Below are positions 29,378 to 62,867 of a stretch of DNA of 64,000 nt, one piece after another; position 1 is the first letter of the stretch; each line of letters opens with the position of its first letter. This DNA comes from Ceratodon purpureus (Eukaryota > Streptophyta > Bryopsida > Pseudoditrichales > Ditrichaceae). The position numbers and the translations under genes are program-made. The stretch spans positions 57,004,089 to 57,068,088 of the forward strand of contig CM026426.1 in the NCBI GenBank assembly GCA_014871385.1, written 5' to 3'. The notes below the pieces were generated by a model that saw nothing but the letters and a program-made list of their open reading frames with translations, had not been told where the DNA came from and did no database searches.

Positions 29378-29386
29378 TAAGAAGCC
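29378..29386. repeat. 9-bp target duplication of the MULE (left)
   Basis: TAAGAAGCC here is identical to 45483-45491 directly beyond the right end. A 9-bp duplication is diagnostic for the Mutator superfamily. Confidence 0.95.
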
Positions 29387-29515
29387 GGAGAAGGCTAAAT
29401 GCCATGTAGTGAAGGATAAGGCGGGAGCGGCGCGCCGTGCGCGCCCCCGTGGCGCGCCACGTCAAACGCTCGGTTTCCACCTAAAGCAGCCGTCGCGGGT
29501 AATTCCCGGCTACAG

Positions 29516-30250
29516 GGGGAGAGCACAATAAAGTGTACCACAAAGTGCAACATGTGATCACTAGGAAGTGAATATGAAGTGTGCTGTTTTTTATTGCTCA
29601 AAGCTAATTTTGAGCATTTTGGTGTAGTTTTTGAGCATTTTAGTCACTTTTTAAGGTGTCACAAGGTATCTTATAGGCTTCTCCATAAGAAAAACATCTT
29701 CAATTGAAACTTAATTTGACCGCTAGTTCTAAATCATGAAAATGAACTTTTCCAAAGTCTTAATTTCTTCATTTGGAGCCCTCTATTGTCTTTAGAGGAT
29801 GTTTTTTCCAATTTCAAAAACAATATTTGGTGTAAAAAACCTCTCAAAAAGTTTCGTCGAAAACAGCTCCTCAAAAACGTCCCAACGAAACTTTTTGGCT
29901 GTACAAACTTCCAAAGGAATTGCTTAGGCTCATTTTTGAAACCGCAATTCACAATCGGAGGGTACAGCGCAGTCAAAAGTGATTTCTAACATTTGTGCAC
30001 TCTTTTTTGTCCACTTCTTCAAATGACAGCATTCACTTTGGATCACTTGCCGTGACTCGTAAGGCTTCCTAAAAGGCACACATCGGTTCCAAAATTTTGT
30101 AGACTCAAGATGACCGAGTCTATTTTCTATACCCGAAGCCCCTTCCAACATCTCATCAAATTATATGTCACTTTTCTTAGTGTTTACAACAATGGCTGAA
30201 ATTGGCAATGAGCTAAGCACTTTTGTGGTACACTTTATTGTGCTTCCCCC
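29516..30250 (+). mobile_element. 735-bp inverted-repeat element (MITE-like), copy 3, nested in the MULE TIR
   Basis: It begins GGGGAGAGCACAATAAAG and ends CTTTATTGTGCTTCCCCC. TACA (or CTACAG, given the G/C-run ambiguity) is repeated at 29510-29515 and 30251-30256. The uninterrupted right TIR at 45.35 kb shows the empty site. It therefore landed after the MULE took its present form. Confidence 0.9.
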
Positions 30251-31039
30251 CTACAGTGATTACTTCGTTTTGTGACATAGAGCTTGTGACTCTGAACCCC
30301 GTGACACAATCATATCCTCGTGACACCAACAGTGAGACACTGATGTTTGTAACACTGCCCGTTGAAAAAAACATTGTGACGCTGGCATGACGTCAGCCCT
30401 CGTCTCCATCAGTTCTACCGGGTTAGGGTTTTCGTGTTTCAGTGTCTCCGAGGCTCAGCACCAAAGCTCCGCTCCGTCTTCTATGCAGTGTTTTTGGGTC
30501 ATATTGTATTAGCGCAGGGGCTATGTCGCATTGATAATGTTTAGGGTTTGTGGCGATTTGAAGGTCGTTAACACGAAATTTAATAGAGGTCATGATTGTA
30601 CCTTCCATGTGATTGTTTACCTTGTACGTCGAGACTCGATTTAATTGTGCAATGAAGGGTTGGCGGGCGAGGACTTGATACATTGGGGTTTAGGGTTCCA
30701 ATGGCGCATTCAAGTTATGCTCCCGCAACTGACTACAACATGAAGGGGGTTACGTGATGGGCACAATGCCGGTAAGTTTACGGAGCCTCTCTGTTTCTTC
30801 CTTCGTGGTTAGCAATTCCTTCGGTGATGGGGAGTGAGTCACGCGTTCGCAAGAACAGGCGCTGTCTACGCACGGTGAAGCCTGTGAAGCCCAATAACAC
30901 CGGACTGTTTTTCTGGAGTATTCCTAGGTTGTTCCGCGGATTGATTTCGAGGAGTCTTTGAATTGCGCAATTCAGAATGTCTTCCTTCTTGTTATTTTCC
31001 AGGACCTTCGGATACAGTTTATTCGGTTAACCCTATTTC

Positions 31040-34000
31040 ATGCTTGAGGAGACTAACACATCCTCCCACTGTTGTTCTAGGGACCAAGTGAATTACGAAG
31101 AAGCGGATTGGTACTACAGTTCTGTGCGGTGTCTAGGAGGCTGTGGGCGCGTAGTGGGGCTACAAAACAAATTCAGGTACATTAGTTTTTCTGATACGGA
31201 CTGCCCTACGTGTGGAGAAATGTCATTCCCCTGCAGTGCTGAAGAAATGGCTCCTCAACCTGTGACATTGAGGGTGAAGATTTACAAGCAAACATACAAC
31301 GTTACGTATCCCAGCCAGCAATGAGTGGAGGATCTCAAGAGAGAGTTTGCAACCATGGCTAAAGGGGGAGTGAAACCATGTGGCAATCGCAAGTTCTTCC
31401 TCTGCATATACTGTGGTAAGAATCACTACTCTAACAAAATGATGCTTAACAAGCACAGATTTATTGAAGGGTGTGATGAAGCCAAGTATCCGGATGGAAA
31501 GAAAGCCCTGCTGCTTCCGTATCCGGATTTCAGGACGGGAGAGGGGAAGAAGGTGGAGGTCCTAGGGAAGTCAGTCGCGGTTTTGAAGAGCCACGATAAA
31601 CCGCATGGCAATTCCGAAGATGGAGCAGATGACGACCTTGGTGTGGACGGGGATGACTGTGACGATTTCGAGGCAGATTTAGTCACAGCGGAGGATTGCG
31701 AGAAGGCGACTGAGGTGAAAGGGAGTTCCCATACTGAGCCACATACTTCTCCACGTGCGGGTTGTAGTATTCCACAGGATTTTCTCTTCAAGGGACCAGC
31801 AGTGCGGATAGGAAGTGCATCCGCCACACGGTTAGCAGGTACTGAAAAGCCCACGGTCGCGCAGGTTGAGGGGGTTCAGATACAGAAGGCAAAGAAGATT
31901 ATAGGGAAAAAACCGAAAGTACTTGTAGGGAAGGACTGTGCACCCAGGGAATCCCCGACGCTTAATGCGGGAAGTGGTGTCAATTTCAGCAAGAAGAATA
32001 GCACAACTGAGACTCGACGGAGTCCTCGGGTTACTTCGGCAGATGAGAAGAAGGGTTCCAGAGATGTCTCACCGCAGGTCCGGGCTGTAGAGAAAATGGC
32101 GACTCTCGATTTATCGCCACATCGTAAAGGAGGGATGTTGTCAAGAGAGGGCATCTCTAGCCCAATGTTTTGCGACACGAATTTGGCACAAGAGCCAGAG
32201 GTCAGCGGTGATGGAGCAGATGGTGTCGGGAGGGATACGTTGAAGCGAAAAGCATGTAGCGACGACGACTTGGAAACGTTCAAGGTCTTTGTCCGGGATC
32301 CTCTGCTGCATCGAAAACTTAAATTACCTAGATCCACAACAAATTCTACTTCTGAGGTTAGTTACTTCTCGTGACATTAAATGACAGGTTTAATTCCTTT
32401 CTCTTGAATTCCTACAATTCGGAAGTTCTCCACTTAACTCTGGATTGTGTTTGTTGGCCAAAGGTGGGGATCTCTTCAGGAAAGCTGACTGTCGGGGCAG
32501 AGTCACAGTGTCACACAGGTTGTGACAATGTTACAGGAAGCGCCCTAGACGTTGTATCAGTGGTTCCTACGGGCCCATCTACACCTGCGATCTCAGAGGA
32601 CCCTACATACGCCGCTATCCCTAAAAGTGACGGCTGGAGTAGGAATGCCAAACTCCGACAATTCTGGGCGGATGGGATGGGCAGACCTCATCCTCTATCG
32701 TATCATCCCGATGTCGAGGTGGCTCACCAAAGAGGGCTCGCCGATTTTAAGAGAGCTGAAGACGAGTACATCGAGAAGAATTGCCCGTCGGAGGAAAGCC
32801 TACAGGTCCAGATTCCCCCTCCCGTCTGTCCGTTGAAGCCACGCATGCCTGGATTGTACTATCTGAAGGAGATAGGGGCGGAGGTTGATCTGCCATGGAC
32901 GTGGGAGTGCAGCAGTGGAGATAAGTTCGTAGAGAAATGGGAGCTTTCCCTAATGTGTACAGATTTCAAACTGAAGCTCATGCGTTGCGTGTACTGGTGG
33001 ACTTGTAGAAAGGTGAGTAATCGATTCCTGCTTGCGCTGTTCATTAGTTTTTTGACCTTTTCTAAATTCAGTGACCATTTAACGGCCGAGTGACACTGGC
33101 GCATAAGGTCACATCCAAACTAACAAGAGAATCTGATATTCAGGGGGATAGGAAAGCACCTCTACCTGCTGATGTAATTGAAGCAGTTTCAGTTGCCATT
33201 GACGGATTAGTTTTTTCTGTGGAAGAGGGCACTGTTTACAAAGACCTGGAATGCCTCCGTCAATACATTCAGTGGACACAGGATTATTCTAATTACAAAC
33301 TAGCACTTGCTGCGTACCGGGTCGACATCGTAAGGAAACGCGACGACATGTTGGAGTCCGCGATTATCCAATTCCGCCGTAAGAATGGGAAGTTAAGAGA
33401 GGCATCTGTATGGCACTGGTGTCCCATGTGGCAGATTCTTACAACGGACGAGGGAATAATGCAGAAGTTGCCATCCTTGCCTTGGGTGCACGACGGTAAA
33501 AATTTCTGCTCCAATTCTGTTTCACATTCTCATTTTTTTTCGCTCTAAGCTTTACTGTCGTGACTTTTTAGGTTTAAGGGTGTTCCACTTTCGTACGACT
33601 GATACCCTGTTATCGTGTTCTCTTCATTCCGTCGCAGTAAGCGAGGCTCAGGAGGTGCGACGCATTCTCTATGAATCGCGGGTGAGCCCACGACCTCCTT
33701 CGCATTTTGTGTATATTATGCGGATTCTCTTTAGAAACAAACACGGGATTTTTCGTCAGTTCACATGTCCCTTTTACGGAATTACAAGCCACATTTTTAG
33801 AAGTGAATGTCGGGAACTGGAGGACGTGATGAAGGCGCTGTCCATGCTGATTTTGGAAGGACCTTCTTTATTTGCGACGTTGTCGGTGGATGTCAAAGAT
33901 GCTGCGTTTAGGGAATTGGTGTTTTTGGAAATCCAGCTAGTGAACTCCGGATTGGGCGAAGACATAGTATCGAATTTGGTTGCTTGGGTACGATTGGTGC

Positions 34001-36387
34001 AATTGAGAGCGTTGCAGGATTTTGCGGTATGTCAGCCAGAGCAGTTTCAAGAGGCCTGGACTACCACAGACCCTAATCTCTGGGCGGAACACTATTCCAA
34101 TTGGCGATCAACACTTAGAGTTCGAGAGGAGCGAGATGTTGGGTGGATTATGGGCGGTTGTATTACAAGCACGAACCCCCTTGTGTCCGAGTTGCGACTC
34201 AAACTCCAGGACAATGTTCACACTATGACCAACCTAATCCGCGAGGAGGATGAGAAGCATTGGGGGGACTGTACCCGTGATATGCGACTGCCCGACTCTG
34301 CGACTTCTACAGAACCCTTACTCAATGATTCAGAAGCCGGCCAAGGTTATGATGTAGAGAATGCGTCCAAAGCGATGCCATCCGGTTGTGATTCTGGTCA
34401 CGATGAGAGATTAGAAGATACGGTTATAGTGACGGACATTGTCACCGCGACTGATACTACTGCCGAAGGAGAAATTGCAGTTGAGGAGATCGGGGTGTCC
34501 GGTGGTTTAGGGTCAGGAGACTGTGACACTGAGGTGCATGATGGAGCCGAACCAGGAGTCAGTGTCACAGACCTTCTGACACTGACCGACGACAATGACT
34601 CTGTAATCGCAGCAGTGATAAAAGATATAGCAGACGGTGTTGACAGATGTGACTCCGGAGACTCTACTGAGACAGAGCTCTGTAACCCTGTTGTGCCTTC
34701 TGTGACCGGCGGCAACTCTGAACTTCAAACAACATCTGCTGTGAACGCTAACCTGTCTCAAAGCGATAATTCAGTACCCGATGAGCCAGGGCATGAGGCG
34801 ATGCTGGAGTTCAAGCGAGATCAGAAGGATACAGTTGACTTCATTCGCGAAAAAGGTAAAATAATTACCCCCGTCGTTGCAGACTTACATTCTACCGGGG
34901 TGAGTTCAACGCAGGCTGTATTTCCGGAGATCGACAAAATTCTGGACGAGGACATAGTGTCCCCAGGTGCGGCACCGTTACTTACGCTAAGTCAGTTTAC
35001 TAACAGTGCCCATGCAGGTCAGGACGTCGTAGTTGAAAATGGCACGTTTTCACAAGACCCTAGCTTTCATCAGTGGGTAAGAGATGATGTACAGAATCAT
35101 GTACAAACGCCTTATAAAGGGGTGTCCATTGTTGCGGGGCAAGACAGTGGGCATCTTGGATTTGCTGATGAAGCTACGACTTGCAGGAACCTTGCCCAGA
35201 GCTTTGAAGACGAAGAAGACCTTGAAGCGGTGTCTCAGTTGGTGAACCTGTCCCAGGCTGCTGAACGTGATACTGCTGTGGGCCCGATGAGGAAACCTGC
35301 CACACGATCAAGATATCTTACGAAGAATGAGGTTTTGAAGAGGGGGGCTCATTCATTGCCGGACTTGTGTCTAATTCAGGTTGGGGAAATTGGAGTTTTG
35401 ACATTGGCACAGGCCTATACTTCTCTCAATATTGAGGACTTATTACGGAAACTCCCCGGAAGGGAAGGAAAGAAGGACCCCGCGGATGTAGTTGTTTTTT
35501 ACAACGAGTCGCGTAAAGAGATAGAGGTGAAATTTTCCAACATTCGCGATTTGAAGCGTCTTCGCACTCGTCTCGGCAACGACATTGTTGATTTTACACT
35601 GTCACGAATGTATTATCAATACCCGGCTCGTAGTCGCCACGAGATTCAGTTCCTCACGTCCCGGGTATCCAGTTGCTATATGACAGTGGCCAAAGGCAGG
35701 ACAACTTTGAAGAAGTGGGCGTCCGTTTTTCTTCAGCCTCCTTCACCTGTTCGGATATATCAAGTGAAGGAATTACTCCTCCCCTGGGTTACGGCCAATC
35801 ATTGGTCTCTACTTGTGTTTCAATACGATAGAGTCCTTCACTTTGACTCATTTCCGGATAGTGAATTGCATGTTCCAGGGAAGAAACATGCTGATTTTGT
35901 TAATGTCATTAGTCATTCTTGGCAGACTCTTAGAGGAGTGGAGTTGTACGCTGTCCCCGTAGTCTCTCAGAGTGTTTTCCATCAGAAGGGGACTTACGAG
36001 TGTGGTCATCATACTCTACGCAATGCTATGCTGTATTTGAAGGTACGTGGCATTCACTTGTATCGACTGTTTTCGAACTGTGTTCAGCTTATAGTCCCAT
36101 ATTACCATTCAAACTTTTTCTTACGTAATGTCATAGTCAGTGTTGAACTTCATGTGCAGTTTCAAGGGCATCTGAGTGTGGACAGAGAGGAGAGCTTGGC
36201 CGCGGCACTAATGGAGCCGTTCAAACCTAAGGATACCAGTCTCGAGATTCTGACACTCTTGGCAAGAGAACTTGACTTCAGGAGGCGGGATACTAGATAC
36301 AGACCACCGCTTTGCGTAGTTGCGAATGTGTTAGAGAAAGACGTAGAGCCAGACGGAGATATGGTGCTGTTAGATTCCTGGGTTTAG
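31040..36387 (+). CDS. MULE-borne gene with Ulp1/C48 SUMO-protease domain
   Basis: Open stretches follow one another with GT-AG joins: 31040-32354 (donor GAG|GTTAGT), about 32490-33013 (AAAG|GTGAGT), 33144-33494, then about 33640-36041 with a likely short intron at 33681-33796, and 36161-36387. The N-terminal part has paired CxxC and C/H residues (CGRVVGL, CPTCGEM, CIYCGKNH). The middle is long, acidic and unstructured. The C48 domain lies at about 35.74-36.03 kb, with His in NHWSLLVF (35800), Asp in HFDSF (35845) and Cys in YECGHHTLRN (36001). Such proteases cut SUMO-type conjugates. ULP genes in MULEs are known as KAONASHI. One TGA at 31322-31324 splits the first exon in frame. Confidence 0.8.
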
Positions 36388-36584
36388 AACTTCTATGCAT
36401 AGTGCCACTGTTGTGTATAGCAAACGTTCACTGTTTCTGTACGAAGTCACAGACTGTACTCTTCAATTTTTTTTATTCCACACACTGTCATTATCGCTGA
36501 GTGTATACTATGTTCCGAAATGGGAGTATGCTCCGTTGAATGTCTTCTGTGATTTGTCCAAGTGTTTTCCTTGTTGTCTCGCGG

Positions 36585-36800
36585 GTGACACTGGTGACAC
36601 TGGTGACATTGCTGGCAGTGGTGACATTGGTGACACTGGTGACATTGCTGATATTGGTGACACTGGTTAACACTGTTGATACTGGTGACACTGGTGAACA
36701 CTGTTGATACTGGTGACACAGTTGATACTCCTAACACTAGTGATACTGGTGACACAGTTGATACTCTTAACACTAGTGATACTGGTGACACAGGATTGCA
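36585..36800. repeat. GTGACACTG minisatellite behind the ULP gene
   Basis: Near-perfect tandem 9-mers GTGACACTG, GTGACATTG and GTTGATACT fill about 215 bp, starting some 200 bp after the ULP stop codon. The same 9-mer is scattered singly through the whole MULE. Confidence 0.9.
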
Positions 36801-37520
36801 GGAAGAGTCTTCATAATTTATCTGTTTCCCAGTGTTACAATGAACGGGAAGTATGCTGTATTCTGGCTGTCTTTGTTATGAAGAATACCATTAAATCGCA
36901 CACCCGATTCTTCGATCTATACCCTCGACTATACAGTTGAGATCGAACATTTTCGTGGCCACTTCGACATTCCATTCATATATGGCCCTGGGATTAACGT
37001 GCAATGAGGCAATGAGTTTCAAAATGTCCTTCACTTAGCTAGTTCGACGTATAACGCATTATTTCATGGAGATTGACAGTTAATTTTTGTGCTAACAGAA
37101 TTTACCCTTTCTAATACTAAGAGACTGTATTCCAGTATTTGCAATATCTAACTTTTAAATAAATATCAATGGCTAAATAAACGGTCATCGAAGTCTGAGC
37201 TCGCAATCAATATACGTAAGTCATCCAGTTAATATATATAGGAACTTCTGTAATATATGTATCGTGGATACATTATGTCATTGTCCTCGAGATTTACAAT
37301 ATGGAAACCTTATTATATATCAAAATCTTTATTCTACAAATTAGTTGGGATGCATTATGTCCCTCTAATATATGAAATTACAGAACTACCCATTATCAAT
37401 AACTCTTTCTTAATGCAATGGATTTGTTAGCTTCCTAAATTTAAATATTTATAAATATATACCTATGTTTATGTATACATAGACTTGAATTCTATATGGA
37501 AGTTTTTATATATATAGATA

Positions 37521-38077
37521 TAGTCGAACCTTGATAAGTGTTAACGGTTGGGAGCATACCATTTGTTAACACTTAGAGAATAGCAACACTTAACATTTAA
37601 CACTTATAGAAAAAAAGGATATAATATCTATGCATGAAGTTCGCAACATTAATAATACGTAGTAATATTTTATATAGCATTCACTCCCTTTTTATATCAT
37701 TTACACCTTCCCTACTTGCTTTTATTTCAATGTTTATGAACTTAGAAATACACTTACCTTTTATTTCATGAACTAAAAATATATAATCTTTTAATTTACG
37801 ATTTAAATAAACATGTGCTAATAAATTTGTTTCTCAAATGGGAAGTACAAACTACTGCTTCACCTCAAAGTTACCTCCCTCCAAGTTATGGTTCTTACAA
37901 AGTCCCTTTTAAGAAAGATATCACTTATCGAGGTAAAAATAACAAGGTTAAGAGCATAACATTACATAACACTTAACACATTACACTTACTAGACTTAAT
38001 TTCAAGAGAGCAAAAATCTCCGTAACAGATATAGAGTTTTAACACTTATGAAGGCAACGCTTATCGAGGTTAGACTA
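37521..38077. mobile_element. Small mariner/pogo-like inverted-repeat insert in the MULE
   Basis: The left end, AGTCGAACCTTGATAAGTG, and the complement of the right end, AGTCTAACCTCGATAAGCG, match at 16 of 19 positions. They are flanked by TA, the duplication used by Tc1/mariner elements. About 557 bp, non-coding, with inner AACACTTA repeats. Confidence 0.55.
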
Positions 38078-38080
38078 TAC

Positions 38081-38196
38081 AAACAATATATATATATATA
38101 TATCTATATATATATAGATATATATATGTATATATATCAACATTTATATAAGTATCTATGTATATACATTAATATAGTTATGTATAAATATATATA

Positions 38197-38256
<60 letters not shown>
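38081..38256. repeat. TA-rich microsatellite
   Basis: Long (TA)n with a few interruptions. The YIYIYI frame it yields is not a gene. Confidence 0.9.
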
Positions 38257-38257
<1 letters not shown>

Positions 38258-39190
38258 ACGTATTAATATAAATTTAATTACTCATTTGTATTTTTTGTGA
38301 ATTTCCTTCACTATTGTTTTATTAATGAACTTTTAATTTCGAATAAATGCATTCATTGCTTATTCATTTAAAAAAGTTTTAATGTCCTTATTTTTTATAT
38401 TTTTTATTCTCTCTATGTTACTATTTGCATCGAATTAATGGTTGCATTTAATATTTCCAAATTATTTTATGGTATATTACTCTGTCCCTGTTTTTAAAGA
38501 AATTATATAAACGAAATGTAAACGACATGGAAATTGTTTATAAAAAATTAATTGCATTTCAGTCCGTTCACCTAATTAAACTCTAAATTATTTGTTTTTA
38601 TTTTTATTACATGGTGTACTGTAGGAAAGAAGTACATCGTAGTAATGGGTAGGGATTAATATAATTTGTTTCCAAAGTAGTGCGTTATGTACAAATTTTT
38701 TACATGTGTTTTGAAATACAAATTAGCGAGGATATTTGTACTAATACTGTAATCTCGCGGGGATATGTGTACTAAAAATGTAGTCGATACCATACTGAAG
38801 ACAAGTCCATCAGATAAGAAAGAAATTGGAAAACTGAGAACATAAAATCGTCAAGTTCTGTAGCAAAACCAATAAGAAGATAAAAACAATGGCAAATTAA
38901 CTTGCAAAGATGGAGTATAATGCGAATATATTACTTTAATTCTTCATTAAAACTAGTATAAAATTGTAGACATAAGAACATAAAACTCCGTATCGTCTGA
39001 ATACAGTCTCGAGTGAATCATTTATTGATTCAGTAACTCTCGTACAGACTGTCACAGTGTCACAGTGTAACACATGATGGATAGTGTCACACTGTAATGA
39101 CTTAACACTTTATGGCTACTGTCATAATGTAAGACGCTTCTACACCTGCATTACTGTACGTACCACGACATACAACTAATTGCCTTAAGT

Positions 39191-39588
39191 TCAAAACTGC
39201 GAGCTGCTGTGGGTACAAGAAACCACAGAGTTGCAACCACACTGAAGTCTCTTAGTGTCACATGTCGATTTCTCCCACTTGGAATGCCCTTGCAGTAGAG
39301 ATACGTAAGTAGTAGAACAGTGTACTCCCTGGAAGTGTCCACTGTCGGGGAAGAGAATGACCCTCTTCCTTTCTGGAGCCTCCGTATTAACACCTAAGGG
39401 AACAGTCTGCTTACGCTTCACATGGCCACGGACTAATGACAGAGGTGGAAGATAAATTCGATCATTTTGCGCAGGCACGCCGATACAGTTGGAGGACGGA
39501 AGGGAGATATGCGTTTTCCGGAGAGGTGCCTCTACATAGTCTGCCATAGTTGCTAAGAAGTCCAGTACTTCTGATTCTAACGCATCCA
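39191..39588 (-). CDS. Small MULE gene with its own TATA box
   Basis: A minus-strand TATATAAGG lies at about 39697-39705, and the first good ATG (39588) opens a frame of about 132 codons: MDALESEVLDFLATMADYVE, then a Pro/Lys-rich stretch (VRGHVKRKQTV, APERKRVIL), then a Cys-rich tail (CDTKRLQCGCNSVVSC). I recognise no family. The basic KRKQ and ERKR runs could serve nuclear import or DNA contact. It lies downstream of the other minus-strand genes of the element. It is a candidate for an accessory factor, but that is inference. Confidence 0.45.
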
Positions 39589-40188
39589 TACCTACTTTAG
39601 AGTCTGAAACGAGAGCAGTCCTAACGAAAAACACAGCCTAGAAAATGGAAGCTCAAAAAAGAGATTGAAAGAGAGTTTCTGAGACAAAGAGTTTCTCCCT
39701 TATATACAGAGCAGAGGGCGTCGATGTGTTGAGTACGTTCACGTTCTTCTCCTCTGGGAACTTGTTCACGTCCGGAAGTATGAACCCTAAATCAAATATA
39801 GTTATGGTGCGCAACCGCAAATAATGACGGGCGTACGATTCTTATGTAAGTACTGAGTAATTCTCTTAATTGAGCAAAGGAAGATGTAGTCTCGGACACA
39901 TTGGAGGTGATGATTAGATTATACCGTAGGTTCAGTGAAAGCAGTTCGATAGTGTCACAGTGTAACACATAAGTGAAGGCAAGCATTGAACATACAATTT
40001 GATAACGATGAACATATTATAAACATTTATTCCATTAGCACACGCGTGGCCAAAAATTAGCCGAAGCCATACACTTCGTCCACGGACATCGTCAGTTCTG
40101 ACTGTTCCACTCCAACGTATGCTAAGTCGTCAATAAACGTAGGGGCGACTCAGGAAGATATATACCCATCTGCGCAGACTCGTAATCA

Positions 40189-40611
40189 CTAACTGCGACT
40201 ATAACAGCTTATGTTATGGTCTTCCTCCTCACCCATGGCAGAGTAGAAATTCTTCATAACCCATCGCATCTCTTCACTGTCTGACCCGCTTTCCGTTTTA
40301 GGAAGGGTTAGAAAATGACGTTCTCTGCAACTCTGCCGTCCAGCAACATTGCTCTCAAAATCCGATGGGTCGACATCCTTAGAGCGCCGCCTCGACCGCA
40401 CATTCCGACTCTGGTTGGACGCGCGGTCAACCCTCACGCGGTAGCATCTACCGCCCACCCTCTTGGCTCGCCCACGTTCACCTATCGACTGACCATGCCC
40501 TGCCACCGGAGAGACGCAGAACTTGAGCAACAGGCATATCGATAAGGTGAACAAAGAAAGTAAGAGCCAATCCCCTAAACCATCAACAACGACACGGAAA
40601 CTGATATACAT
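40189..40611 (-). CDS. Small MULE gene with a membrane segment and an Arg-rich region
   Basis: ATG at 40611 opens 140 codons. Residues about 14-34 are strongly hydrophobic (WLLLSLFTLSICLLLKFCVS), a likely signal anchor. Then comes an Arg/Ser-rich middle (RSRRRSKDVD) and an acidic end (SGSDSEEM, GEEEDHN). No family recognised. It lies between the transposase gene (upstream, same strand) and the small TATA-driven gene. It could instead be the last exon of a longer transcript. Confidence 0.4.
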   Translation of the reverse strand: MYISFRVVVDGLGDWLLLSLFTLSICLLLKFCVSPVAGHGQSIGERGRAKRVGGRCYRVRVDRASNQSRNVRSRRRSKDVDPSDFESNVAGRQSCRERHFLTLPKTESGSDSEEMRWVMKNFYSAMGEEEDHNISCYSRS

Positions 40612-40790
40612 GCTGACGGATCGAAAATGAGAATGACGAGCTTTGGAGATGGAGTACCGTCAAACTAGAATGAGCGACTATAGGACGCGACTAGAAACAA
40701 AGTAACCATCACCGAAGAGTGTGGTTGACGTCTCTTAACAGCGCTACTATTCACTGGTTGGATGAAACATGATATTCTTACGTATCGTAC

Positions 40791-43700
40791 CTATAACCGT
40801 CGTGAAACTGGATTGAACGACCTCTCAAGGAAGTCCTTATTGCGACCTAGCTTGAATCCTTGACCGTCGTCTACAACCTGTAACACTGGTGACTCAGCAA
40901 GCGGATGCAGAGAACCATGCTTCAGCTCAGCCTTAATCTTCCGGATACGACCCAACGTTCTATTCAACTCAGCTATTAGGTGCTCCATCATTACGGAGTC
41001 ACCGTCTACTTCCTCGTGTAATTCAATCACTTGAAGCCGCAAGCGTTCAGCGGGGTCCTCAGCATTCCTCGTTTGTGGGGTGGGTCTCAGAGCCGAAAAA
41101 GGGGTCTCTGACTGTGACATGTTCGGCATTTGAACCCTCTGGGGCGTGAGAAGCTGATGCAGTCCACCTGTGACACTGCCAGCCAACCTGCCACAAAACC
41201 TAGCAATTGTTCCTTCCGTGACATCCGGGTTCATCATCATGACCACTTTGACGTGGTGTTTACACATATTCCCACGCTGCGCCCAGACGCAGTTACAGAC
41301 TGCCCATTCTGAACCCGGATTATGGACAGTGTAACGGAGATGACGATGTTGAGTGGATGTCACAAGGGCAGTGTCACCATCATGTTCTGGCAGTGTCACA
41401 TCTTCGTCTGGAATTTTCCTGGCTCGAAGGATAGATGAGACCACGATATCCTGACCTTTCTTATTGTCAACGAACCCTATTTCTTTACGTAACCACTTGT
41501 ACCAGTAATGGTCTACAACGTCTTCTGTTAGAGCTGTAATGCACCAATCAACCCTTCTACCAGTCATTCTACTCCTCTCAGACTTCAGTATCGACTTCGC
41601 AAACCCGTGATAACCCTCTATGGCCGCATTAGTGTCTTGTCCACAGTACGATAGATTTCGAAATCCAACTACCCACATATGCACCTTATCAAGCCACTGG
41701 AATTTCATATATTCCCAGAATTCCACTTCCTTTGGGTACCTCTTTTCCAACTCTAAGATTTTATTCTCAGCCCATTCCCTACCTTCCGGTCCAGGTGGAG
41801 CACTCCTATCATACATCAACATACCGAGCTCCTTCATTATGACGGCTCTCATTTTCAAATCAGAGATTTTGTAACACGCATTCTTCTGCCACGCTCTACG
41901 TACGTGCCATAGGCACAGGAATATCTCTATCTTAGGCCATGTTTTGCTGTACACATAGAATAAAATAACAGTTTCATTAGGAGGATACATTTCAGGAATG
42001 ACATATATCCATAACTAATAGATTGGACTAAATTTTACGTGAAGGGGGATCACATACTTGATGGCATTAATCTCGCCCTGCGCACAGTCCACGATGAAGG
42101 CTGCGGGTTTCCATTCTGGTTTTATCCCCACCATTTTCTTGTTTAAGGCGGCCATCCACGGAGTTAAATCCGCTTCAGCACATCTAGAGGTGAGAATGAA
42201 TGCAACAGGAATTCCGTTGTGCCATTCGTCGAAAACCATTAGCGTATACAGTGGGAACAGCGAAGACAATTTACACACGGTTTGAACAGTGAGGTCAGTC
42301 CTGACCAGTGTCACAATGTCACAGTATCGAATGTAAGAAACTCAAAAAAAAAAAGGGAAGTTTGAATCTGATGAGTACCTTCTTCTCATTAGTACCGAAT
42401 GTGGCGTCAACAGAAATTCCACCCAAATGACCGTGCTTAAGCATCATCTTGGCCTGCCATGGCGTTTGGATCCCGATAGTAAAAGGCATATTTTCCCCTG
42501 TCAATTCACCTTCAACTGGTTTGGCCTTTTCCTTGTTTGATTCAGAGTAATAGAAAATCTTCTCAGGATTTCTCTGCACCCACATCCGTACACTTTGGGC
42601 GTCGTTTTTGTGTAACATATATGTCTCTTGGGCAAGCTTCCCAGAGATATTACGAATATCTTTCGTTGTCAGCAATAAATCCCTAGTCAGATCTTTCCCT
42701 TCCGCTTCCCATTGTTTCAGCAAGTCCAGATGCTTCCTCATGATCTGGTTCGGTGTGTCCTTCCGCCTCAAGCATTCCTCCACAAACGTTCTGATTTCAG
42801 GGGACAGATGAGCTGAGAAGGCACTTCGATCTCCAATTTTCATCCCTCCATGAACCACGAGGCCATCGCTATTCACATGTTTCTCTTGAATGATACAAAT
42901 CTCGGAGACATGAGGGAGGTACAACAGCGACTTCACAGTAAATTGCGCCAAACAGCCCCTCTTAATGGACGATCCCCATTTCTTCTTAGAATCCCGAGAC
43001 TTTGGAGGTGGCTTCTTCACGTTGCTTGGTTTCGGTGAACCCCCACTTGTGTGTACTTCTACCTTGGGAGCCACAGTATCCACAACCTCCCCGTCATCTG
43101 AAGGTCCACTCTCAATTTCTGGAAAATCCATACAGGACTCCGTAATATCACCAAGCGCGGAGAGTAGTTCTGACAACTCACAACAGTCACCATTGTTCAC
43201 GGACGCAGTGGCGTTACCTTCATCTATTGATGCCGAACAGCAAGAAGACTTTGCATTGTCTGTCACCGGGGAACAGTAAGTTCCGCTGCCAGTACACTGA
43301 TCCAGAACTGATGGCAGTGGAGCGTGACACTGAACCACTGGTGTTTCACACCCCTTCATCTTCCTACAACCACACTTCGGTGAAGTTGTGGTCGTTTTAT
43401 TTATGACAGGTGTAGAACCGGCCATGGAAGAGGATTGGTTCAGGTCCATGACAACGGACTCCGCTGGTATGTGGTCCGATGATACCAGACATGCTACCTG
43501 TTCGTGAGTGGCATCTGTTTTTTTCTTCCTAGGCGCTCGTTTTTTCTTCTCTTTTGGTGAAAGTTTGCACGACTGTTCTATCGACGATCCATCAGAGTCC
43601 ACGGGAGGTTTCTTCTTCCGAGGCGCTCGTTTTTTCTTCTCTTTTAGTGGATGTTCGGTCGACTGTTCTATCGTTGATCCATAGGAGTCCGCGGCCGGTT

Positions 43701-44853
43701 TCTTCTTCCGAGGCGCTCGCTTTTTCTTCTCTTTTGCTGGAAGTTCGCCCGACTGTTCTAACGTCAATCCTTCGGAGTCCACGGGCAGTTTCTTCTTTCG
43801 AGGAGCTCGTTTCTTAGTGACATTTGCCGAATCCACAACTGGATCTTCCACAGCGGGAACCTCATTCAGGTCCGGAATGCACCCAGCATGCCCTTCAGTA
43901 GGATCAAGTGCTGTGACACCGTCTCCAACAACTCCCTTGTTCTTCCTACTCACCCGCATCTTAGGTGGGACGACTGGATCTTGAAGCATCCAGTCCATGG
44001 CGTCTACCTCTACTCCAGGTCTAGACTTGAACTTCCGTGGTGCCTTGCGTGCTTGACTCTTGGGAGCCCGTTTCGCCCTTGCCTTCCTAGTCGGTGCCAA
44101 CATGTTCCCTTCTGGAATTGAATCTGGAATACGGTGCTTCTTCCTCTCCTTAGGGAGGAGGTCCTCAGTGATTGGTTTCACGATACGGGAGTAATCCTTG
44201 GGCCCATATTCACATTTGTACCTGCGCTCAATAAATCAGAAAGCAATGCAGGCCACAAATTCATATGACTTTCACCCTTAACCACGACAAACAAAAACTG
44301 CCATTGGAGAACTGTCGACCACATCTTTTAGATCAATCGGGATGGAACATGACACGCGGCAGAGCATGTAGTACCCAGTGCTTCTGATATTGTACATAGA
44401 TTTATCTGTGAACCACACCTACCTAGATGCAACAATACAACAATACATGCATTACGAAGGAATCCCTAAACCATACCTAGTTAAGGATAGAGGCGTCCGC
44501 GGTCCATCTCGGCGTAGATTCGGCTTCCGGTTCTCTTTATTCGCCCTGAACCTACATTGTGTCCCTTCTCGCCCACATTGCATACCATCTACAAAATCGC
44601 CTACTCGGCTTGTTGGAATGTAACACTGCTGAACCAGGTGTGACTTCTTGTGTTCCCCTCGGGGAGGCCGATACTCTAGCTCCCACCTTAGGTCACGAGC
44701 ACCGAAAACACCCGGGGGTGGTTCCTGAACTAGGTCCTCAATCTGTTGAAGCTGGAGTGCGTGAATGTCAAATTGGGAGAGATCCACCTCAACACCCATA
44801 TCATCGTCAATGATGGGTTTCTGTTCGGGCTGTCCATTGCAAAATCCCTCCAT
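40791..44853 (-). CDS. MULE (mudrA-type) transposase with SWIM zinc finger
   Basis: Exons on the minus strand: 44853-44477, 44221-42379, a catalytic exon ending at 42058, and 41946-40791. The first and last joins fit GT-AG and phase; the intron between 42379 and about 42300 does not resolve cleanly by eye. Exon 2 opens with basic Pro/Lys sequence and four repeats of KEKKKRAPRKKK. It then carries a Cys-rich patch and a zinc-binding DNA-contact region (GCLAQFTVKSL, HVNSDGLVVHGG). The DDE triad: Asp in ISVDATFGTNE, Asp in AFIVDCAQGE, Glu in NAAIEGYHGFAK. A SWIM finger (CNCVWAQRGNMCKHH) follows, then a coiled tail. The protein would bind the 352-bp ends and move the element. Confidence 0.88.
43500..43830 (-). 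repeat. Coding repeat KEKKKRAPRKKK in the transposase
   Basis: About four copies of a unit of roughly 35 codons, KEKKKRAPRKKK followed by a Ser/Asp/Gln spacer (SDGSSIEQS), lie in tandem. The RAPRKKK core resembles an AT-hook-like, minor-groove or nuclear-import patch. Confidence 0.8.
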
Positions 44854-45130
44854 GTTGCTCAAATGCGTCGATTGAAATGGGAAGTGCAATCAGAAGGACA
44901 TAGGTAGCGAGAGATACATAGAAACTGTACTGTTTAGAACACGATGCAACTCCATTATCGTAAGTTTACAATAACCCTAAACCGTAAACGCACACAACTG
45001 ATGCATGTGACATTGCTCACATCAAGGAGAACAAATTGAGCAACCACAGATCTGAGACCTAAACCGATTGAAGAAATAGCACAAAGAACCGTCGCTAAAA
45101 GGAAACCCTAAACGTACATTCCTCACTATG

Positions 45131-45482
45131 AGACGGAGCGGAGCTTCGGTGCTGAGCCTCGGAGACACTGAAACACGAAAACCCTAACCCGGTAGAACTG
45201 ATGGAGACGAGGGCTGACGTCATGCCAGCGTCACAATGTTTTTTTCAACGGGCAGTGTTACAAACATCAGTGTCTCACTGTTGGTGTCACGAGGATATGA
45301 TTGTGTCACGGGGTTTAGAGTCACAAGCTCTGTGTCACAAAACGAAGTAATCACTGTAGCCGGGAATTACCCGCGACGGCTGCTTTAGGTGGAAACCGGG
45401 CGTTTGACGTGGCGCGCCACGGGGGCGCGCACGGCGCGCCGCTCCCGCCCTATCCTTCACTACATGGCATTTAGCCTTCTCC
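45131..45482. repeat. Right terminal inverted repeat of the MULE, 352 bp
   Basis: Complementary to 29387-29515 plus 30257-30479. It contains a GC-rich outer part (GGCGCGCC repeats) and an inner part rich in GTGACA motifs. Confidence 0.95.
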
Positions 45483-45491
45483 TAAGAAGCC
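45483..45491. repeat. 9-bp target duplication of the MULE (right)
   Basis: TAAGAAGCC, identical to 29378-29386. Confidence 0.95.
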
Positions 45492-45580
45492 GAGCCTTGC
45501 CCTCTACCAACTGAGCTGAAGGACCCAAATCCGGGATGAGATTAGCTCTACCAACTAAGCTAGGACGGCTGTGCCCTATC
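45492..45580 (-). other. Two tandem tRNA 5'-half-like fragments
   Basis: The complement reads CCTAGCTTAGTTGGTAGAGC and, 40 bp on, TTCAGCTCAGTTGGTAGAGG followed by CAAGGCTC. Both match the box A/D-arm of tRNAs (the second resembles tRNA-Lys), but neither has a T-arm (GGTTCGA) in place. They could be tRNA pseudogenes or the head of a SINE. Confidence 0.4.
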
Positions 45581-45599
45581 ACTGTACCCCACGTTTGCA

Positions 45600-46850
45600 A
45601 AAATTGTAACGTTGATTGGTGCTGGGGCCTATGACTGCGGCGTCAATGTCGTTGATTATAATCACAGACTTCACCCAAAATTTGCATGCAATTCATTAAC
45701 ATTGTGTGGGGATATTGTCTGAAAATTGGATTAGAAATAGACAAATATTACGTAGAATAATTTTTTCATATTTTTGTTTTTCTATCCATAAAATTTCTTT
45801 TGTATTTTGTTTTTAGAATAATCTATGAATGAACTTGCTATCGACTTCATAAACAATTATTATTTTAAAGAAATCACCATGTCCTTCCTTTCCTCAAATT
45901 CCACTGAAGACAAGTCTGTAGACACTCTTGCAGTATTTTGAGGCCAATCACATAGTGTATCAATAACAGCAGCAGAACAAATGCATTCCAACATCAGAGT
46001 GAGCAAAGTAAATGAACAAAAATTATCTGGGTTTTTATACACAGTAAGTGCAGCTCTCTTGAGGGTTGTAAAACTATTCTACCATGATGTCTAATTTCTC
46101 TATAGATCCTTACTTAGACTTACATTTACTCACATCAAAGAGGGCACGGGCAGGACATCCCCTAAGCTGGAACTTACCGCGCCCTTTGCGTGGATGGATG
46201 GGTTGGAGTCCACGTCTCAAGTCAAAATGCTATTCACTCTGCAATACGTGCCGCACAATATCTACACTAATCCTTCTAATTAAGCTACATCTTGACTTAT
46301 TATTTTAAATGAAAAGTATTGTTCTTGTTGCTTCTTGTTTTGTAGTGCATTTGTTATACTTTAGATACTAGATTCCAATCTTGTGGAGTATCAAATAAGA
46401 TTTGTGGCACATTCATTTTGCAGCAGGTATTGCACTCTCTCTTCCATCCTTCATTTAAGCAAGCATACAAGGTGTCCAAAGAGCTTACAATGTATATATT
46501 TGTTGCGTCAGGTATTGCATGGTTGTTGTGATTTGTTCTCAAGTTGTATTTGTAGAAGTTATTAGGATTCATTTGTTTAAATCTAGTAAATTATAAAGCT
46601 ATGGCTCACATATAAAATGTTTCTTCTTTGCATGATTTAGTTTAATCTATATAGTTTTGTATTTTGTTATTTCATTATTTTTCAGTTTTCAATATCACAC
46701 TCCATTTCGTTATACTTTCCATGAATGTGAATGTTTAGAGTACATTGTATGTTTAGTGTGGTATAGAATTCATAGTCTTGTTTGTTTTTTGGTTGTGTTG
46801 ATATATCAATTAAGATTATATCTTTCTATTGGTTGCTTAAGGTAAGATAA
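45600..46850. other. AT-rich stretch without a supported gene
   Basis: Short frames only. A 60-codon minus frame at 45860-46042 shows no family that I recognise. Confidence 0.35.
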
Positions 46851-47154
46851 TAGCCTTGGAGAGGATAAAGGAAGTGCCACATATTCAATATCCAAGTGAA
46901 GGACCTATTCATTACTAAGATTTGATATGGACTCAAGGGATGAGACGGGGTACAAAGGACTCATCTATTTGTACAGTGATGACGGCCTATATTTTGTGAG
47001 AAAGAATAAACGACTTTATTGAAGGACAAGTCATGGATGACAGATCTTCAGTTGAATGGGCCAAGGAAGATAGCAAGGAAAACAAGAAAGAGCTCAATCG
47101 CATCCAGTTGACTTCATCTATAGTTCAAACATGGTATGTAATCTTATTTTTTAT

Positions 47155-49035
47155 CACTATAAGAATCCCGCGTTTTAGGTGACGTTCTCCAAAAACATGG
47201 TCGTGTTTTTTTCATGTCTCTGTGTTAGTCATTCATGTCTTGAGGAACGTGAAGACGTTAACTTGTTTTTTGAGATAAACTGGGCTTATCGTCACCAGAC
47301 ACGAGCGCGCTATCCTAAAAACACAAAGACGTTTGGAAAAACGTCCGCGTCTATGGGGACGTGGCAGAGGACATCCTTGTAGACACGTAATTGCCACGTC
47401 AACAACGACCTCGTTTTGACGGACGGTAAAATGGGCGCGAAGTTACGGGGCTGCAAGGTAACTTTCTGCCCACAGTGAAAAAAACCACAAGAAGGGCAGG
47501 GTCAGCAAAGGGAGCTAAAAAAGGCCGAGAGGGATTGAAGAATCTTTTTTTATTTTTTCTTTATAAATGAAATTTACAATATCAAAGTTCTTCTCTCTTT
47601 CTTTTTTGGAGATGTCCGCATGTCTCGAAAGATGTCGACACAGACATCTGTCAAGACATGGTGATGTTCAATAATCCATTTTTCATTCATTGGTGGCAAC
47701 ATTCATCCATCAAGGCTTTAGGTTAGGGTTTTCAGCCTTGGTAGGGTTAGGGTGAGCCGCCACTTCGGTGGCTTCTCACCTTGTATTTGAGAGCTTGTTT
47801 TCAAGCTTTTGGTGTTTTCTTCCTCCTCCATGGACTGTCTCCCATTGTTTTCCCTATCAGTCCCTTGTTTCTTCTCCAAGTAGAGTGAGATTCATCACGG
47901 TTGTAGATCTCTTGTAGGGATTTCCAATGGTAGTTAGCACGTCCAATTCCAATTTATAGGTAGTGAGATATTGCCTCCCAAAGTCGGGGTTGTCAAAGGA
48001 GTGCGGCTGGAGGAAGGGTCTCGGATTTTTAGCAATCAGTCCAAGGATTTTGATCCTATGCTTTTGAGATTTTGAGGGTAGATGCACAATCAACTTAGCT
48101 TTCCAAAAAGCTAAGGCACGCCTCAATCCAAGCTAGAATGGAGAGATGGCAACCTAAAAACTGAAAGGTACTTCAAAAAAATCCGGGGGGTTCTCCTAAC
48201 TTCATTCTTGTTCTCCATCTTCTTCTTGTCTCCTTTCCTCCCTTGTTCCTTTCTTCATGTGATCTTCTTTCCTTAGTTTTCTTGTGATCAAATGCCACCA
48301 TCACGGCTATTCAAACACCTTTGTGGCTGCAAAGACACCTTCATGTCTGCAAAAACACTCGCATGTCTACAAAAAACACCCTCATGTCTGCAAAACACCT
48401 TCATGTCTACCAAAACACATTCATCTTTGCAAAAATACCCTTCCACACATCACGTACACATTGACATGGCCATGTCAAGCATAGCAAATTCTACAGCATG
48501 GGGATGTCCACTATAACAAATGTCGGACACAGTTTACGTCCGCACAGACATCGACGTGGACATCACGTTGTCACCACATAGACGTCTCAAAAATCACGGT
48601 GATGTCCTCAATGACGTCTACAGTAACGCAGTTCTAACTCAAAAATCACCGGAAACTATGCTTACGTGGCAAACCATGTCACTTCTTCGCGGCTGACACG
48701 TCAGAATTTCGCGCCGCCACGTCAGAAAATGGCGGGTCCACGTGGTCCGCTACGTCACCATGGCAGCGATGACATCCTCCTCCCATGTGGCACTGCCCGG
48801 AAAAAACTTTGCTGATGTGTCGTCGACGTGGCGTCCACGTTGCATACTTCACTGCCCCTCAAAATCACCCGGAGATGCGCGTGCTACGGAGATGTCTGCA
48901 TGTTTTTTCGGATGTCTGCATTTGTTTTTGCTGCGTCTTAGATGTTCTCATGTCTGCCCAACATCCTTTACAACGTCCACTTATTTTTTTAGACATGATT
49001 CGAGATGTCACCTAAAACGCGGGATTCTTATAGTG
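47155..49035. mobile_element. CACTA-type (En/Spm) non-autonomous element, 1.88 kb
   Basis: The left end is CACTATAAGAATCCCGCG and the right end is its complement (CGCGGGATTCTTATAGTG), a near-perfect repeat of about 27 bp. TAT is duplicated on both sides, the 3-bp duplication of CACTA elements. Subterminal repeats of CATGTCTGCAAAA-type units lie at about 48,325-48,430. No transposase frame; a minus frame at 47857-48126 is unrecognised. Confidence 0.85.
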
Positions 49036-49069
49036 TATTTGCTCGTTTTCCATTTCGTATTCTTTAGAA

Positions 49070-49073
<4 letters not shown>

Positions 49074-49150
<77 letters not shown>
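49074..49150. repeat. TA microsatellite
   Basis: Pure (TA)n just beyond the CACTA-type element. Confidence 0.95.
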
Positions 49151-49154
<4 letters not shown>

Positions 49155-50469
49155 AATAATTGAAATTAAAACAACTACTTGTGCTTTTTAAAGTTTTATT
49201 GTCCTTATGGAAAAGAAGATCACCGATTTGATGCTAAGTATTAAAAATCCAAAAAGGGGATGTTTAGCACAATTTTCCGTAAGGCAATTGCAATTGTATC
49301 CTCATATTGGTGAGATTATTTATTACCATAGTGAGCATCCCAAGGAGAATGGTGAAGTTGCACATGGAGTAATGGATCGCGATTCAATAGTAATGGATAG
49401 CTCCTTGGATATCCGAAGAGTTGAAGAGATGGTTTTTTAAGCGTTTGGATGATGGACTTACAGCTAGACAAGTCGTTGAAGAACATAAGAAGGTATGGTA
49501 TGATAGTTGGACAAAAAACATGATATTCACAGAACAACTCTTTACTTCTTGAGCATGTTTGTTACTATGAGTATCAAAGGGAAAAAATGTATTTGGTATT
49601 TGAACAAAAACGCATTAGTGAGTGTGAATATGTGGAAACTGGAGAATCCTAATTTAGTTTTCTACTATCAAAATGGTGGCGCTACTAGAAGTGTTCTATT
49701 CACCATTGGAATTCAAACTCCATGGCAAAAGACAACTCTTTTGAAATATAGAAGAGTTGGATGTATTTCCATGGATGCAACTATTAATACAAATGAATTG
49801 ATGTACTACTTGTTTACTTTGGTGGTTTTTGATGAGTGGCACAATGGGATTCCAATTGCATGGATTATTTCTTTGCGACAAATAGAAGATGATATTTATG
49901 ATCGGCTATGGGCACTGAAGTTGTTTGTCAACAACAAGGACATAGATTGGAAACCATCGTGCTTCATTGTCGATGATACAATACAAGAACGAGAAGCAAT
50001 CAAGTAAGTATGCAGAATCAGAGAGGTTTAGGGTGAGATAGAGAGATACAGAATTAGAGGGTTTGAGGTTGTATGAGATACTTGTGTCAAGCTTAGGGTT
50101 CACTTTGTTGTCGGAGTTTTCTAGCATTGTGCTATTGTTTAGGGTCTTGGAGTGTTGGAGAGGAGCATTGATTTTGGGGATTGAGCATATTTCAGACGGG
50201 GATTGAGGGCTTGAGGTTCAAGGTTAGAAATTGGTGTTGCGCTTAGGATTCAATTTGTCGCTAGTGTTTAGAATGTGGTTTTTGTGTTGGTCTAGGGTTT
50301 AAGGTTGGATTCTTGTTTTCAAAGTTTTGCTCAATAGGTTTACGTTGCAAATCAGCTTGTTTAGGGTGTCCGCAATGTCAAAGAGGTCCAAGTCCAGGGG
50401 GGAGGGAGGGGTGGGGAGATAGAGTGAAAACGAGTTCTCAAGATGGCCGAATTAAGTCCAATGGGAATG

Positions 50470-51620: not shown

Positions 51621-51672
51621 GTATTTCCAGACAATGCATACGATACTCTTGATGAAGATAGAGGGATAGAAG

Positions 51673-52338: not shown

Positions 52339-52573
52339 TAACTTCAACATTATTCTCCGTTTTCTTGTCAATTTGGTCATATTTGTTAATCCCTGTCAAC
52401 TTTTTGTCAACTTTTTAGTCCCAAATATTCTCCCAAAGGACAAGCTGGCAATGCAAGGAGAAAAATGCCGAGCTTGCACTCTGAGGTGGAAGGTGGAGGT
52501 GAAGATGAAGAAGATGTGGGGAGTGTTGGTGGTGGTGTTGGTGGTGGTGGAGGGTCACGGGGTTGTGTGATGG

Positions 52574-62865: not shown

Positions 62866-62867
62866 TA

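What the first reader, a model, noticed from the sequence alone, without database searches (positions are those of the whole stretch)
30260..45340. A 9-bp motif, GTGACACTG, is scattered all through the MULE and almost nowhere else
I read exact copies (either strand) at about 32506, 33090, 34523, 34560, 39055, 41170, 41369, 41391, 42306 and 43324, plus several in the tandem array at 36585-36670. Close variants (GTGACATTG, GTAACACTG) lie in both terminal repeats, introns, exons and spacers. Chance predicts about 0.12 exact copies in 16 kb on both strands. I noticed only one outside (2138). In Arabidopsis VANDAL MULEs, short dispersed motifs are the targets of the VANC anti-silencing proteins and accumulate in the element. 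A parallel system, with a motif-reading protein encoded here, would explain this pattern.
Basis: partly seen in the sequence, partly recalled or inferred. Interest (0 to 1): 0.88.

Follow-up and report, generated by a model that had tools for sequence, protein, structure and literature searches.

The report
Self-marking DNA motif in plant transposon
A 16-kb plant jumping gene carries dozens of copies of one short DNA word, even inside its protein-coding parts, as if one of its own proteins recognises the whole element by that word, perhaps to keep it from being silenced.

Summary
GTGACACTG occurs 16 times in 64 kb, 15 of them in the MULE. With inner TIRs and tandem array masked, 10 exact copies remain; Markov simulations give 0.14-0.19. 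No 9-mer in the 15 slices tested is more dispersed. Copies share almost no flanking sequence and exceed synonymous-codon expectation in exons (8 against 0.72), so they look selected as DNA.

I corrected the element to 29387-45482: 352-bp TIRs, the left one split by a ~0.73-kb insertion, perfect 9-bp target duplication TAAGAAGCC. Seven degenerate copies in one direction lie 144-256 bp from the right end, mirrored on the left; the outer TIR has none: like subterminal sites of an accessory DNA-binding protein.

It works like VANDAL-VANC (dispersed 9-mer, tandem array, several genes, Ulp1-like domain) but is not shown to be a VANDAL: long TIRs, no DUF1985 match, sites in exons about as densely as elsewhere. 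The reader protein and any effect on methylation are inferred. New variant of a known kind.

The parts
29387..45482 (.). whole MULE, 16,096 bp including a nested ~0.73-kb element
   Evidence: 352-bp TIRs and perfect 9-bp TSD TAAGAAGCC at 29378-29386 and 45483-45491
29387..29515 (+). outer part of left TIR, without motif sites
   Evidence: 2 mismatches in 129 bp to the right TIR; no site with up to 2 mismatches
29516..30250 (.). small TIR element nested in the left TIR; further copies at about 22221-22958 and 58291-59032
   Evidence: TIR word ACTTTATTGTGC in three inverted pairs; CTACAG on both sides of the insertion; ends read by eye
30251..30479 (+). inner part of left TIR with the subterminal motif array: 7 plus-strand sites (0-2 mismatches allowed, none exact) at 30272-30384, start-to-start spacing 14, 15, 19, 14, 15, 27; 4 minus-strand sites, 3 of them overlapping plus-strand ones, the fourth at 30440
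31082..36387 (+). ULP gene, approximate exons 31082-31321, 31325-32353, 32462-33007, 33090-33494, 33799-36042, 36160-36387 (a further short exon near 33640-33682 is possible); in-frame TGA at 31322-31324 (nonsense, splice or gene boundary not resolved); C48-like domain near the 3' end
   Evidence: ORFs and splice-like sites by eye; Peptidase_C48 E 0.011, 16.0 bits, below cutoff 20.7
32498..32530 (.). coding motif cluster: CAGAGTCAC, CAGTGTCAC, GTGACAATG
34523..34584 (.). coding motif cluster: sites at 34523, 34560, 34576
36584..36791 (+). 9-bp-period tandem array of the motif (unit GGTGACACT, 22.9 copies) about 200 bp downstream of the ULP stop codon
   Evidence: 5 exact copies
36839..39040 (.). 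AT-rich spacer without any site of up to one mismatch
39194..39589 (-). possible small third gene (132 aa, start codon near 39589), motif clusters on both sides
   Evidence: ORF; no Pfam match up to E 10; expression unknown
39055..39094 (.). noncoding motif cluster with an 8-bp doublet: sites 39055, 39063, 39082, 39086
39950..39966 (-). noncoding 8-bp motif doublet
40791..44853 (-). MULE transposase gene, approximate exons 44853-44479, 44418-44281, 44205-42382, 42257-42057, 41943-40794 and stop codon; MULE and SWIM-like regions
   Evidence: Pfam MULE 36.7 bits, E 5.8e-09, above cutoff 27.6, on a piece joined across introns; exons by eye; SWIM-like C-C-C-H pattern read by eye
41369..41399 (-). 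two exact copies in the transposase exon
42306..42322 (-). intronic 8-bp motif doublet
45131..45482 (-). right TIR, 352 bp, uninterrupted, with the mirror motif array 144-256 bp from the end

Best explanation
[quoted passage not shown] A subterminal array in each TIR, 20 separate places in the body (14 single sites, 6 clusters) and one 9-bp tandem array let this protein coat its own element and ignore the rest of the genome. The most likely purpose is sequence-specific anti-silencing: keeping the element's genes and ends unmethylated or open so that it can be expressed and move, as VANC does for VANDALs and as TnpA is reported to do for Spm. Shown: the excess, the unshared flanks, the DNA-level excess in coding exons, the subterminal position, the absence around a related relic. 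Inferred: that most sites arose independently, that a reader exists, that it is element-encoded (the ULP-gene protein, with Cys-rich and zinc-finger-like N-terminal stretches, or the transposase), and that it opposes silencing.
For: Masked core: 10 exact sites against 0.14-0.19 expected. Each half alone: CAGTGTCAC is the top exact 9-mer on the left (4) and second on the right (6, against 7 for its one-base shift AGTGTCACA); by one-mismatch neighbourhood it is second on the left (12, against 13 for the overlapping ACAGTGTCA) and tied first on the right (19). The excess is at 0 and 1 mismatch; at 2 mismatches the coding count lies in the synonymous range (26, mean 30.9, sd 4.9). Coding exons hold 8 exact and 13 one-mismatch sites against means of 0.72 and 5.4 (largest 3 and 11 in 120 synonymous-codon permutations), in five of the six orientation-and-phase combinations; the missing one would read TGA in frame. 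Flanks are not shared beyond T at -1 (22 of 31) and a weak T at +1 (14 of 31). Sites cluster: 11 neighbour gaps of at most 60 bp, mean 3.6 for uniform placement, largest of 2,000 trials 11; 4 of the 11 gaps are exactly 8 bp, head to tail. Right TIR: 7 sites in one direction. A degenerate related transposase at 49252-50004 (36% identity, E 2.6e-36) lies in an 18.6-kb flank with 0 exact and 3 near sites. CpG observed/expected is 0.84 in 30244-45366 and 0.65 outside. Precedents: VANC (PMC5735166, passages and two sections), TnpA and MURA (PMC10398659, discussion).
Against: No binding or methylation data. No reader identified: ULP-gene pieces match no DNA-binding family in Pfam beyond a sub-threshold zinc-finger hit (E 0.16). 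VANC21 sites are noncoding; here exons carry them about as densely. One element copy only. CpG ratios also reflect age and coding content, and the CHG ratio does not discriminate: 1.21 in the element and 1.00 outside, but 2-kb bins left of the element (1-30000) run from 0.90 to 1.34, like the element's own 0.95-1.38. Raw one-mismatch neighbourhood counts in eight 7-kb control segments reach 11-28 for their best 9-mers, some of them in tandem or simple repeats, so that measure alone is not special. A 2.2-kb noncoding spacer has no site. Two of the four 8-bp doublets (39055, 39950) share their sequence beyond the motif and may be one duplication. The in-frame TGA may mean that this copy is not intact.
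Confidence: 0.5

Rival explanations
1. The sites are bound by the transposase or an accessory transposition protein only. The TIR arrays are subterminal sites for synapsis, as TNPA sites are in Spm; body copies hold the protein on its own element (cis-preference) and have nothing to do with silencing.
For: One-directional array 144-256 bp from the end in the right TIR, mirrored on the left; TNPA recognises the subterminal repeats of Spm (PMC2613891 passages).
Against: Most sites are far inside the element, many in exons, where synapsis does not need them. The outer 129 bp of the left TIR have none. Body copies are closer to consensus than TIR copies: no exact copy in the TIRs.
Confidence: 0.25
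2. A host factor (transcription factor or insulator protein) reads the motif and drives expression of the element's genes.
For: Sites lie in or near all three genes; TGAC cores are common in plant regulatory sites (recalled).
Against: One exact copy in 47.9 kb outside; the W-box TTGACY is not enriched (7 in 30244-45366, 52 in the 48.9 kb outside it); sites within exons on both strands; absent around the related relic.
Confidence: 0.12
3. By-product of local duplication (slippage and spread of the 9-bp array) without selection.
For: Tandem array at 36584-36791, four 8-bp doublets.
Against: 20 separate places with unrelated flanks; excess in exons over synonymous permutations in both orientations.
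Confidence: 0.08
4. A true VANDAL/KIU element with a strongly diverged VANC.
For: Two clear genes and a possible small third one, with a Ulp1-like domain; motif 2 of 9 positions from that of VANC21.
Against: 352-bp TIRs, about 98% identical; no DUF1985 match up to E 10; no preference for noncoding DNA.
Confidence: 0.05

Closest known systems
VANDAL21-VANC21 (and VANDAL6-VANC6) of Arabidopsis
   Same: MULE with several genes; a 9-bp motif (8-bp for VANC6) repeated through particular element families, with tandem repeats; YAGTATTAY is 2 of 9 positions from CAGTGTCAC
   Different: VANDALs have degenerate TIRs, VANC carries DUF1985, VANC21 sites are in noncoding DNA; here long TIRs, no DUF1985 match, sites about as dense in exons. 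YAGTATTAY itself occurs 0 times in 30244-45366
KIU (Kaonashi) Ulp1-carrying VANDALs
   Same: Ulp1-type domain in a MULE accessory gene; reported to recognise motifs in their own group (PMC13317346 passages)
   Different: KIU elements are described as non-TIR MULEs with noncoding sites
En/Spm with TNPA (CACTA)
   Same: subterminal array of short sites; the Spm protein TnpA is also linked to demethylation (PMC10398659 discussion)
   Different: different superfamily; no spread through exons is mentioned in the passages read
MuDR with MURA
   Same: TIR MULE; the transposase is reported to lower methylation of TIRs (PMC10398659 discussion)
   Different: no dispersed internal motif mentioned in what I read; no Ulp1 gene (recalled)

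Membership tests
MULE (Mutator superfamily) | MULE transposase domain | tested here: met
   Pfam PF10551 36.7 bits, cutoff 27.6, on a piece joined across introns; single exon alone 19.9 bits, below cutoff
MULE (Mutator superfamily) | about 9-bp target duplication and TIRs | tested here: met
   TAAGAAGCC at both ends, TIR 352 bp
VANDAL | degenerate or absent TIRs | tested here: not met
   352-bp TIRs; 5 of 236 aligned inner positions differ, two of them in the end of the small inserted element, and 2 of 129 outer positions
VANDAL | VANC gene with DUF1985 | tested here: not met
   no DUF1985 match up to E 10 in the ULP pieces searched; sequence profiles only, and I did not check separately that the DUF1985 model is in this Pfam copy
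VANDAL | short motif enriched in the element and rare elsewhere | tested here: met
   elsewhere means 47.9 kb only
VANDAL | motif concentrated in noncoding regions | tested here: not met
   21 sites in 8,632 coding bp (2.4 per kb), 10 in 5,764 noncoding bp (1.7 per kb; 2.8 per kb in the 3,562 bp left without the AT-rich spacer); array and inner TIRs left out, exons by eye
VANDAL | motif in tandem repeats | tested here: met
   36584-36791
VANDAL | encoded protein binds the motif and removes methylation | not testable with these tools
   needs EMSA/ChIP and bisulfite data
KIU Ulp1-carrying MULE | Ulp1 (C48) domain | tested here: inconclusive
   E 0.011, 16.0 bits, below cutoff 20.7; H-D-Q-C-like residues read by eye; AlphaFold model unusable, pLDDT 35
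CACTA (En/Spm) | CACTA ends and 3-bp TSD | tested here: not met
   ends GGAGAAGG, 9-bp TSD

The most novel reading that the evidence does not exclude
A sequence-specific self-recognition and anti-silencing system that arose independently of VANC, in a TIR-bearing MULE: reader sites are written by selection into the element's own coding exons, in both orientations and all permitted codon phases, so that nearly the whole element is marked while its proteins stay readable, and the subterminal array serves transposition and anti-silencing together.
Probability: 0.33. Interest if true: 0.88.

Novelty: new variant of a known kind. Interest (0 to 1): 0.7.

Why it matters
In what I read, sequence-specific anti-silencing by dispersed motifs rests on VANDALs. 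A TIR-MULE with the same signature but another gene content would suggest that such systems evolved more than once, and gives a simple computational test for finding more: a short word dispersed and selected in one element family. Sites inside exons show two codes sharing one sequence. A 9-bp tag with its reader could also become a tool for locus-specific demethylation.

Tried and rejected
Whole-genome count: no genome is held. Relatives of the transposase: none in viral contigs; in genome contigs 7 stretches matched a pattern and none was confirmed; these collections hold viruses, bacteria and archaea, so this says little. PDB search with the ULP ORF: 0 hits. AlphaFold of 35140-36042 from a single sequence: pLDDT 35, discarded. 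An expectation-maximisation motif model collapsed to background (2,788 'sites') and was dropped; direct site tables were used instead. RNA explanation: sites lie on both strands; the one Rfam match at gathering score is a snoRNA at 9648-9729, and no tRNA was found. I first took the TIR to be 236 bp without a TSD; the flanks of the small nested element showed it to be 352 bp with a perfect TSD. I first thought that the terminal array spoke for transposase binding at the very end; the corrected ends put it 144 bp inside. A second word, AGTGAAGGA, near both element ends and 4 times inside, shows a weak excess only (12 sites with at most one mismatch in 14.4 kb, 24 in 47.9 kb).

Literature: the listings (20 of 101 shown; 18 of 18; 8 of 347; 10 of 10; 10 of 536; 12 of 38) showed no title that reports a dispersed-motif system in a TIR-MULE; the library is open-access only. 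Sasaki et al. 2022 on eudicot VANC coevolution was not in the listing and I did not ask for it by id; I know it only through a review. Exon boundaries are by eye; one search counted transposase exon 2 (44281-44418) and a possible 43-bp ULP exon as noncoding; neither holds a site.
Full report
Observation. GTGACACTG, either strand, occurs 16 times in 64 kb, 15 of them in the MULE. Masking the inner TIRs (236 bp each, as first delimited) and the tandem array leaves 14,404 bp with 10 exact sites and 31 with at most one mismatch. Three hundred simulated sequences per Markov order (1, 2, 3) gave means of 0.14, 0.14 and 0.19 exact and 3.8, 3.9 and 4.7 near sites, with largest values of 3 and 12. The 47.9 kb outside the corrected element hold 1 exact and 15 near sites. 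Among 9-mers with at least 3 G/C it covers 9 separate 300-bp bins (8 without the array). Of the 15 overlapping 15-kb slices, those clear of the element reach at most 6 bins, and the best 9-mer of each of 200 order-3 Markov sequences reached 3-6. Each half of the element, analysed alone, gives the same or an overlapping word: on the left CAGTGTCAC is the top exact 9-mer (4) and second by one-mismatch neighbourhood (12, after 13 for ACAGTGTCA); on the right it has 6 exact copies beside 7 for AGTGTCACA and ties for the largest neighbourhood (19). Neighbourhood counts alone are not special: the best 9-mers of eight 7-kb control segments reach 11-28, some in tandem or simple repeats.

The element. 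The right flank of the presumed TIR reappears, inverted, left of a small TIR element that abuts the left TIR. Aligning these gave a further 129 bp of TIR with 2 differences. The MULE is therefore 29387-45482, with a perfect 9-bp duplication TAAGAAGCC. The small element, about 0.73 kb, sits in the left TIR and has two further copies in the window. The MULE carries a transposase gene on the minus strand (Pfam MULE 36.7 bits, cutoff 27.6), a plus-strand gene ending in a Ulp1-like domain (E 0.011, below cutoff) and a possible small gene at 39194-39589.

Where the sites are. With exons set by eye, coding DNA (8,632 bp) has 8 exact and 13 one-mismatch sites and noncoding DNA (5,764 bp) has 2 and 8, inner TIRs and array excluded. 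None lies in the AT-rich spacer 36839-39040; without it noncoding DNA has 2.8 sites per kb, coding DNA 2.4. Permuting synonymous codons within each gene (120 times) gives 0.72 exact (largest 3) and 5.4 one-mismatch sites (largest 11), so the proteins and codon usage do not explain them. Sites use five of the six orientation-and-phase combinations; the missing one would read TGA in frame. Flanks are not shared, apart from T at -1 in 22 of 31 sites and a weak T at +1 (14 of 31). I infer repeated origin by point change, with local help from duplication: four 8-bp head-to-tail doublets (two may be one duplication) and a 9-bp array of 22.9 units. In the right TIR seven degenerate sites (1-2 mismatches) run in one direction, their outer edges 144, 158, 173, 192, 206, 221 and 248 bp from the end; the left TIR mirrors them. 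On the opposite strand there are four sites with 1-2 mismatches, three of them overlapping these. The outer 129 bp of the left TIR have none with up to 2 mismatches.

Controls from relatives. The transposase finds a stop-ridden relative at 49252-50004 (36% identity, E 2.6e-36), with a weak further match at 46850-47089 (E 0.53). The 18.6-kb right flank holding this relic has 0 exact and 3 near sites, and in 45367-54000 no 9-mer covers more than 4 bins of 200 bp. So the word belongs to this family, not to MULE transposase coding in general. The relic is too decayed to show whether it once had another word.

Mechanism. A word in excess on both strands, in exons, introns and ends, most likely serves as a protein-binding site in DNA that benefits the element. 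Its restriction to the element suggests an element-encoded reader. The subterminal array resembles accessory-protein sites (Spm TNPA; PMC2613891 passages). The body-wide spread and array resemble VANC targets (PMC5735166: passages, section 9, section 7). CAGTGTCAC is 2 of 9 positions from the VANC21 motif YAGTATTAY; 0.78% of 9-mers are that close. This is suggestive only: YAGTATTAY itself is absent from 30244-45366, and the VANC6 motifs AGTTGTCC and AGTTGTAC occur once each. CpG observed/expected is higher in the element (0.84; 2-kb bins 0.70-0.98) than outside (0.65; bins 0.39-0.83), as expected if it has been methylated less, but also if it is younger or richer in genes. CHG does not discriminate, since the left flank runs as high as the element (0.90-1.34 against 0.95-1.38). 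I put 0.5 on an element-encoded reader acting in anti-silencing, 0.25 on transposition or cis-preference alone.

Against my reading. No reader is identified, no methylation is known, one copy is available, sites are not noncoding-biased as VANC's are, the C48 match is below its curated cutoff, the structure prediction failed, and an in-frame TGA at 31322-31324 leaves the ULP gene model open.

Known or new. VANDALs are described as MULEs with degenerate or no TIRs whose VANC binds noncoding regions (PMC10398659 introduction and discussion; PMC6446971 passages). KIU VANDALs combine VANC with Ulp1 (PMC13317346 passages). This element shares the logic but fails two tested VANDAL features (TIRs, DUF1985) and the noncoding bias. 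I call it a new variant of a known kind: it works like VANDAL-VANC, and membership is not shown. The host is probably a plant (snoR8a snoRNA match at 9648-9729; that this family is a plant one is recalled); species unknown.

Noticed in passing
20298-23378: 14 copies of a palindrome TTTAGCTCAC-n-GTGAGCTAAA (not all perfect) lie on both sides of a 515-aa ORF (20441-21988, minus), partly as a 41-bp array; related words at 62423-63038. Possibly another element with its own short-word system.
   Followed up: partly
22221-22958, 29516-30250, 58291-59032: Three copies of a ~0.73-kb TIR element (ends like GGGGGGAAGCACAATAAAG), one nested in the left TIR of the MULE.
   Followed up: partly
47155-49035: 1.9-kb segment with perfect 29-bp inverted ends CACTATAAGAATCCCGCGTTTTAGGTGAC, perhaps a CACTA-type element nested in the MULE relic.
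   Followed up: no
46850-50004: Degenerate MULE transposase related to the one studied, 36% identity over the catalytic part (49252-50004); the 46850-47089 match is weak, E 0.53.
   Followed up: partly
29408, 35763, 35834, 37027, 38304, 45453: Second word AGTGAAGGA: about 21-30 bp from both element ends and four times inside, twice elsewhere in the window; weak excess, perhaps a transposase site.
   Followed up: partly
43519-43812: 90-bp in-frame repeat in the transposase exon encoding lysine-rich KKKRAPRKKK units.
   Followed up: no
46001-54000: CHG observed/expected is low here (0.56-0.89 in 2-kb bins) compared with 0.95-1.38 in the bins of the MULE and 0.90-1.34 left of it.
   Followed up: no
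164-1495, 51670-52338, 55107-55664: ORFs that look related to each other by eye, with a RING-like finger in 51670-52338 (Pfam zf-RING_2 E 0.0016, below cutoff); unknown repeated gene family.
   Followed up: no
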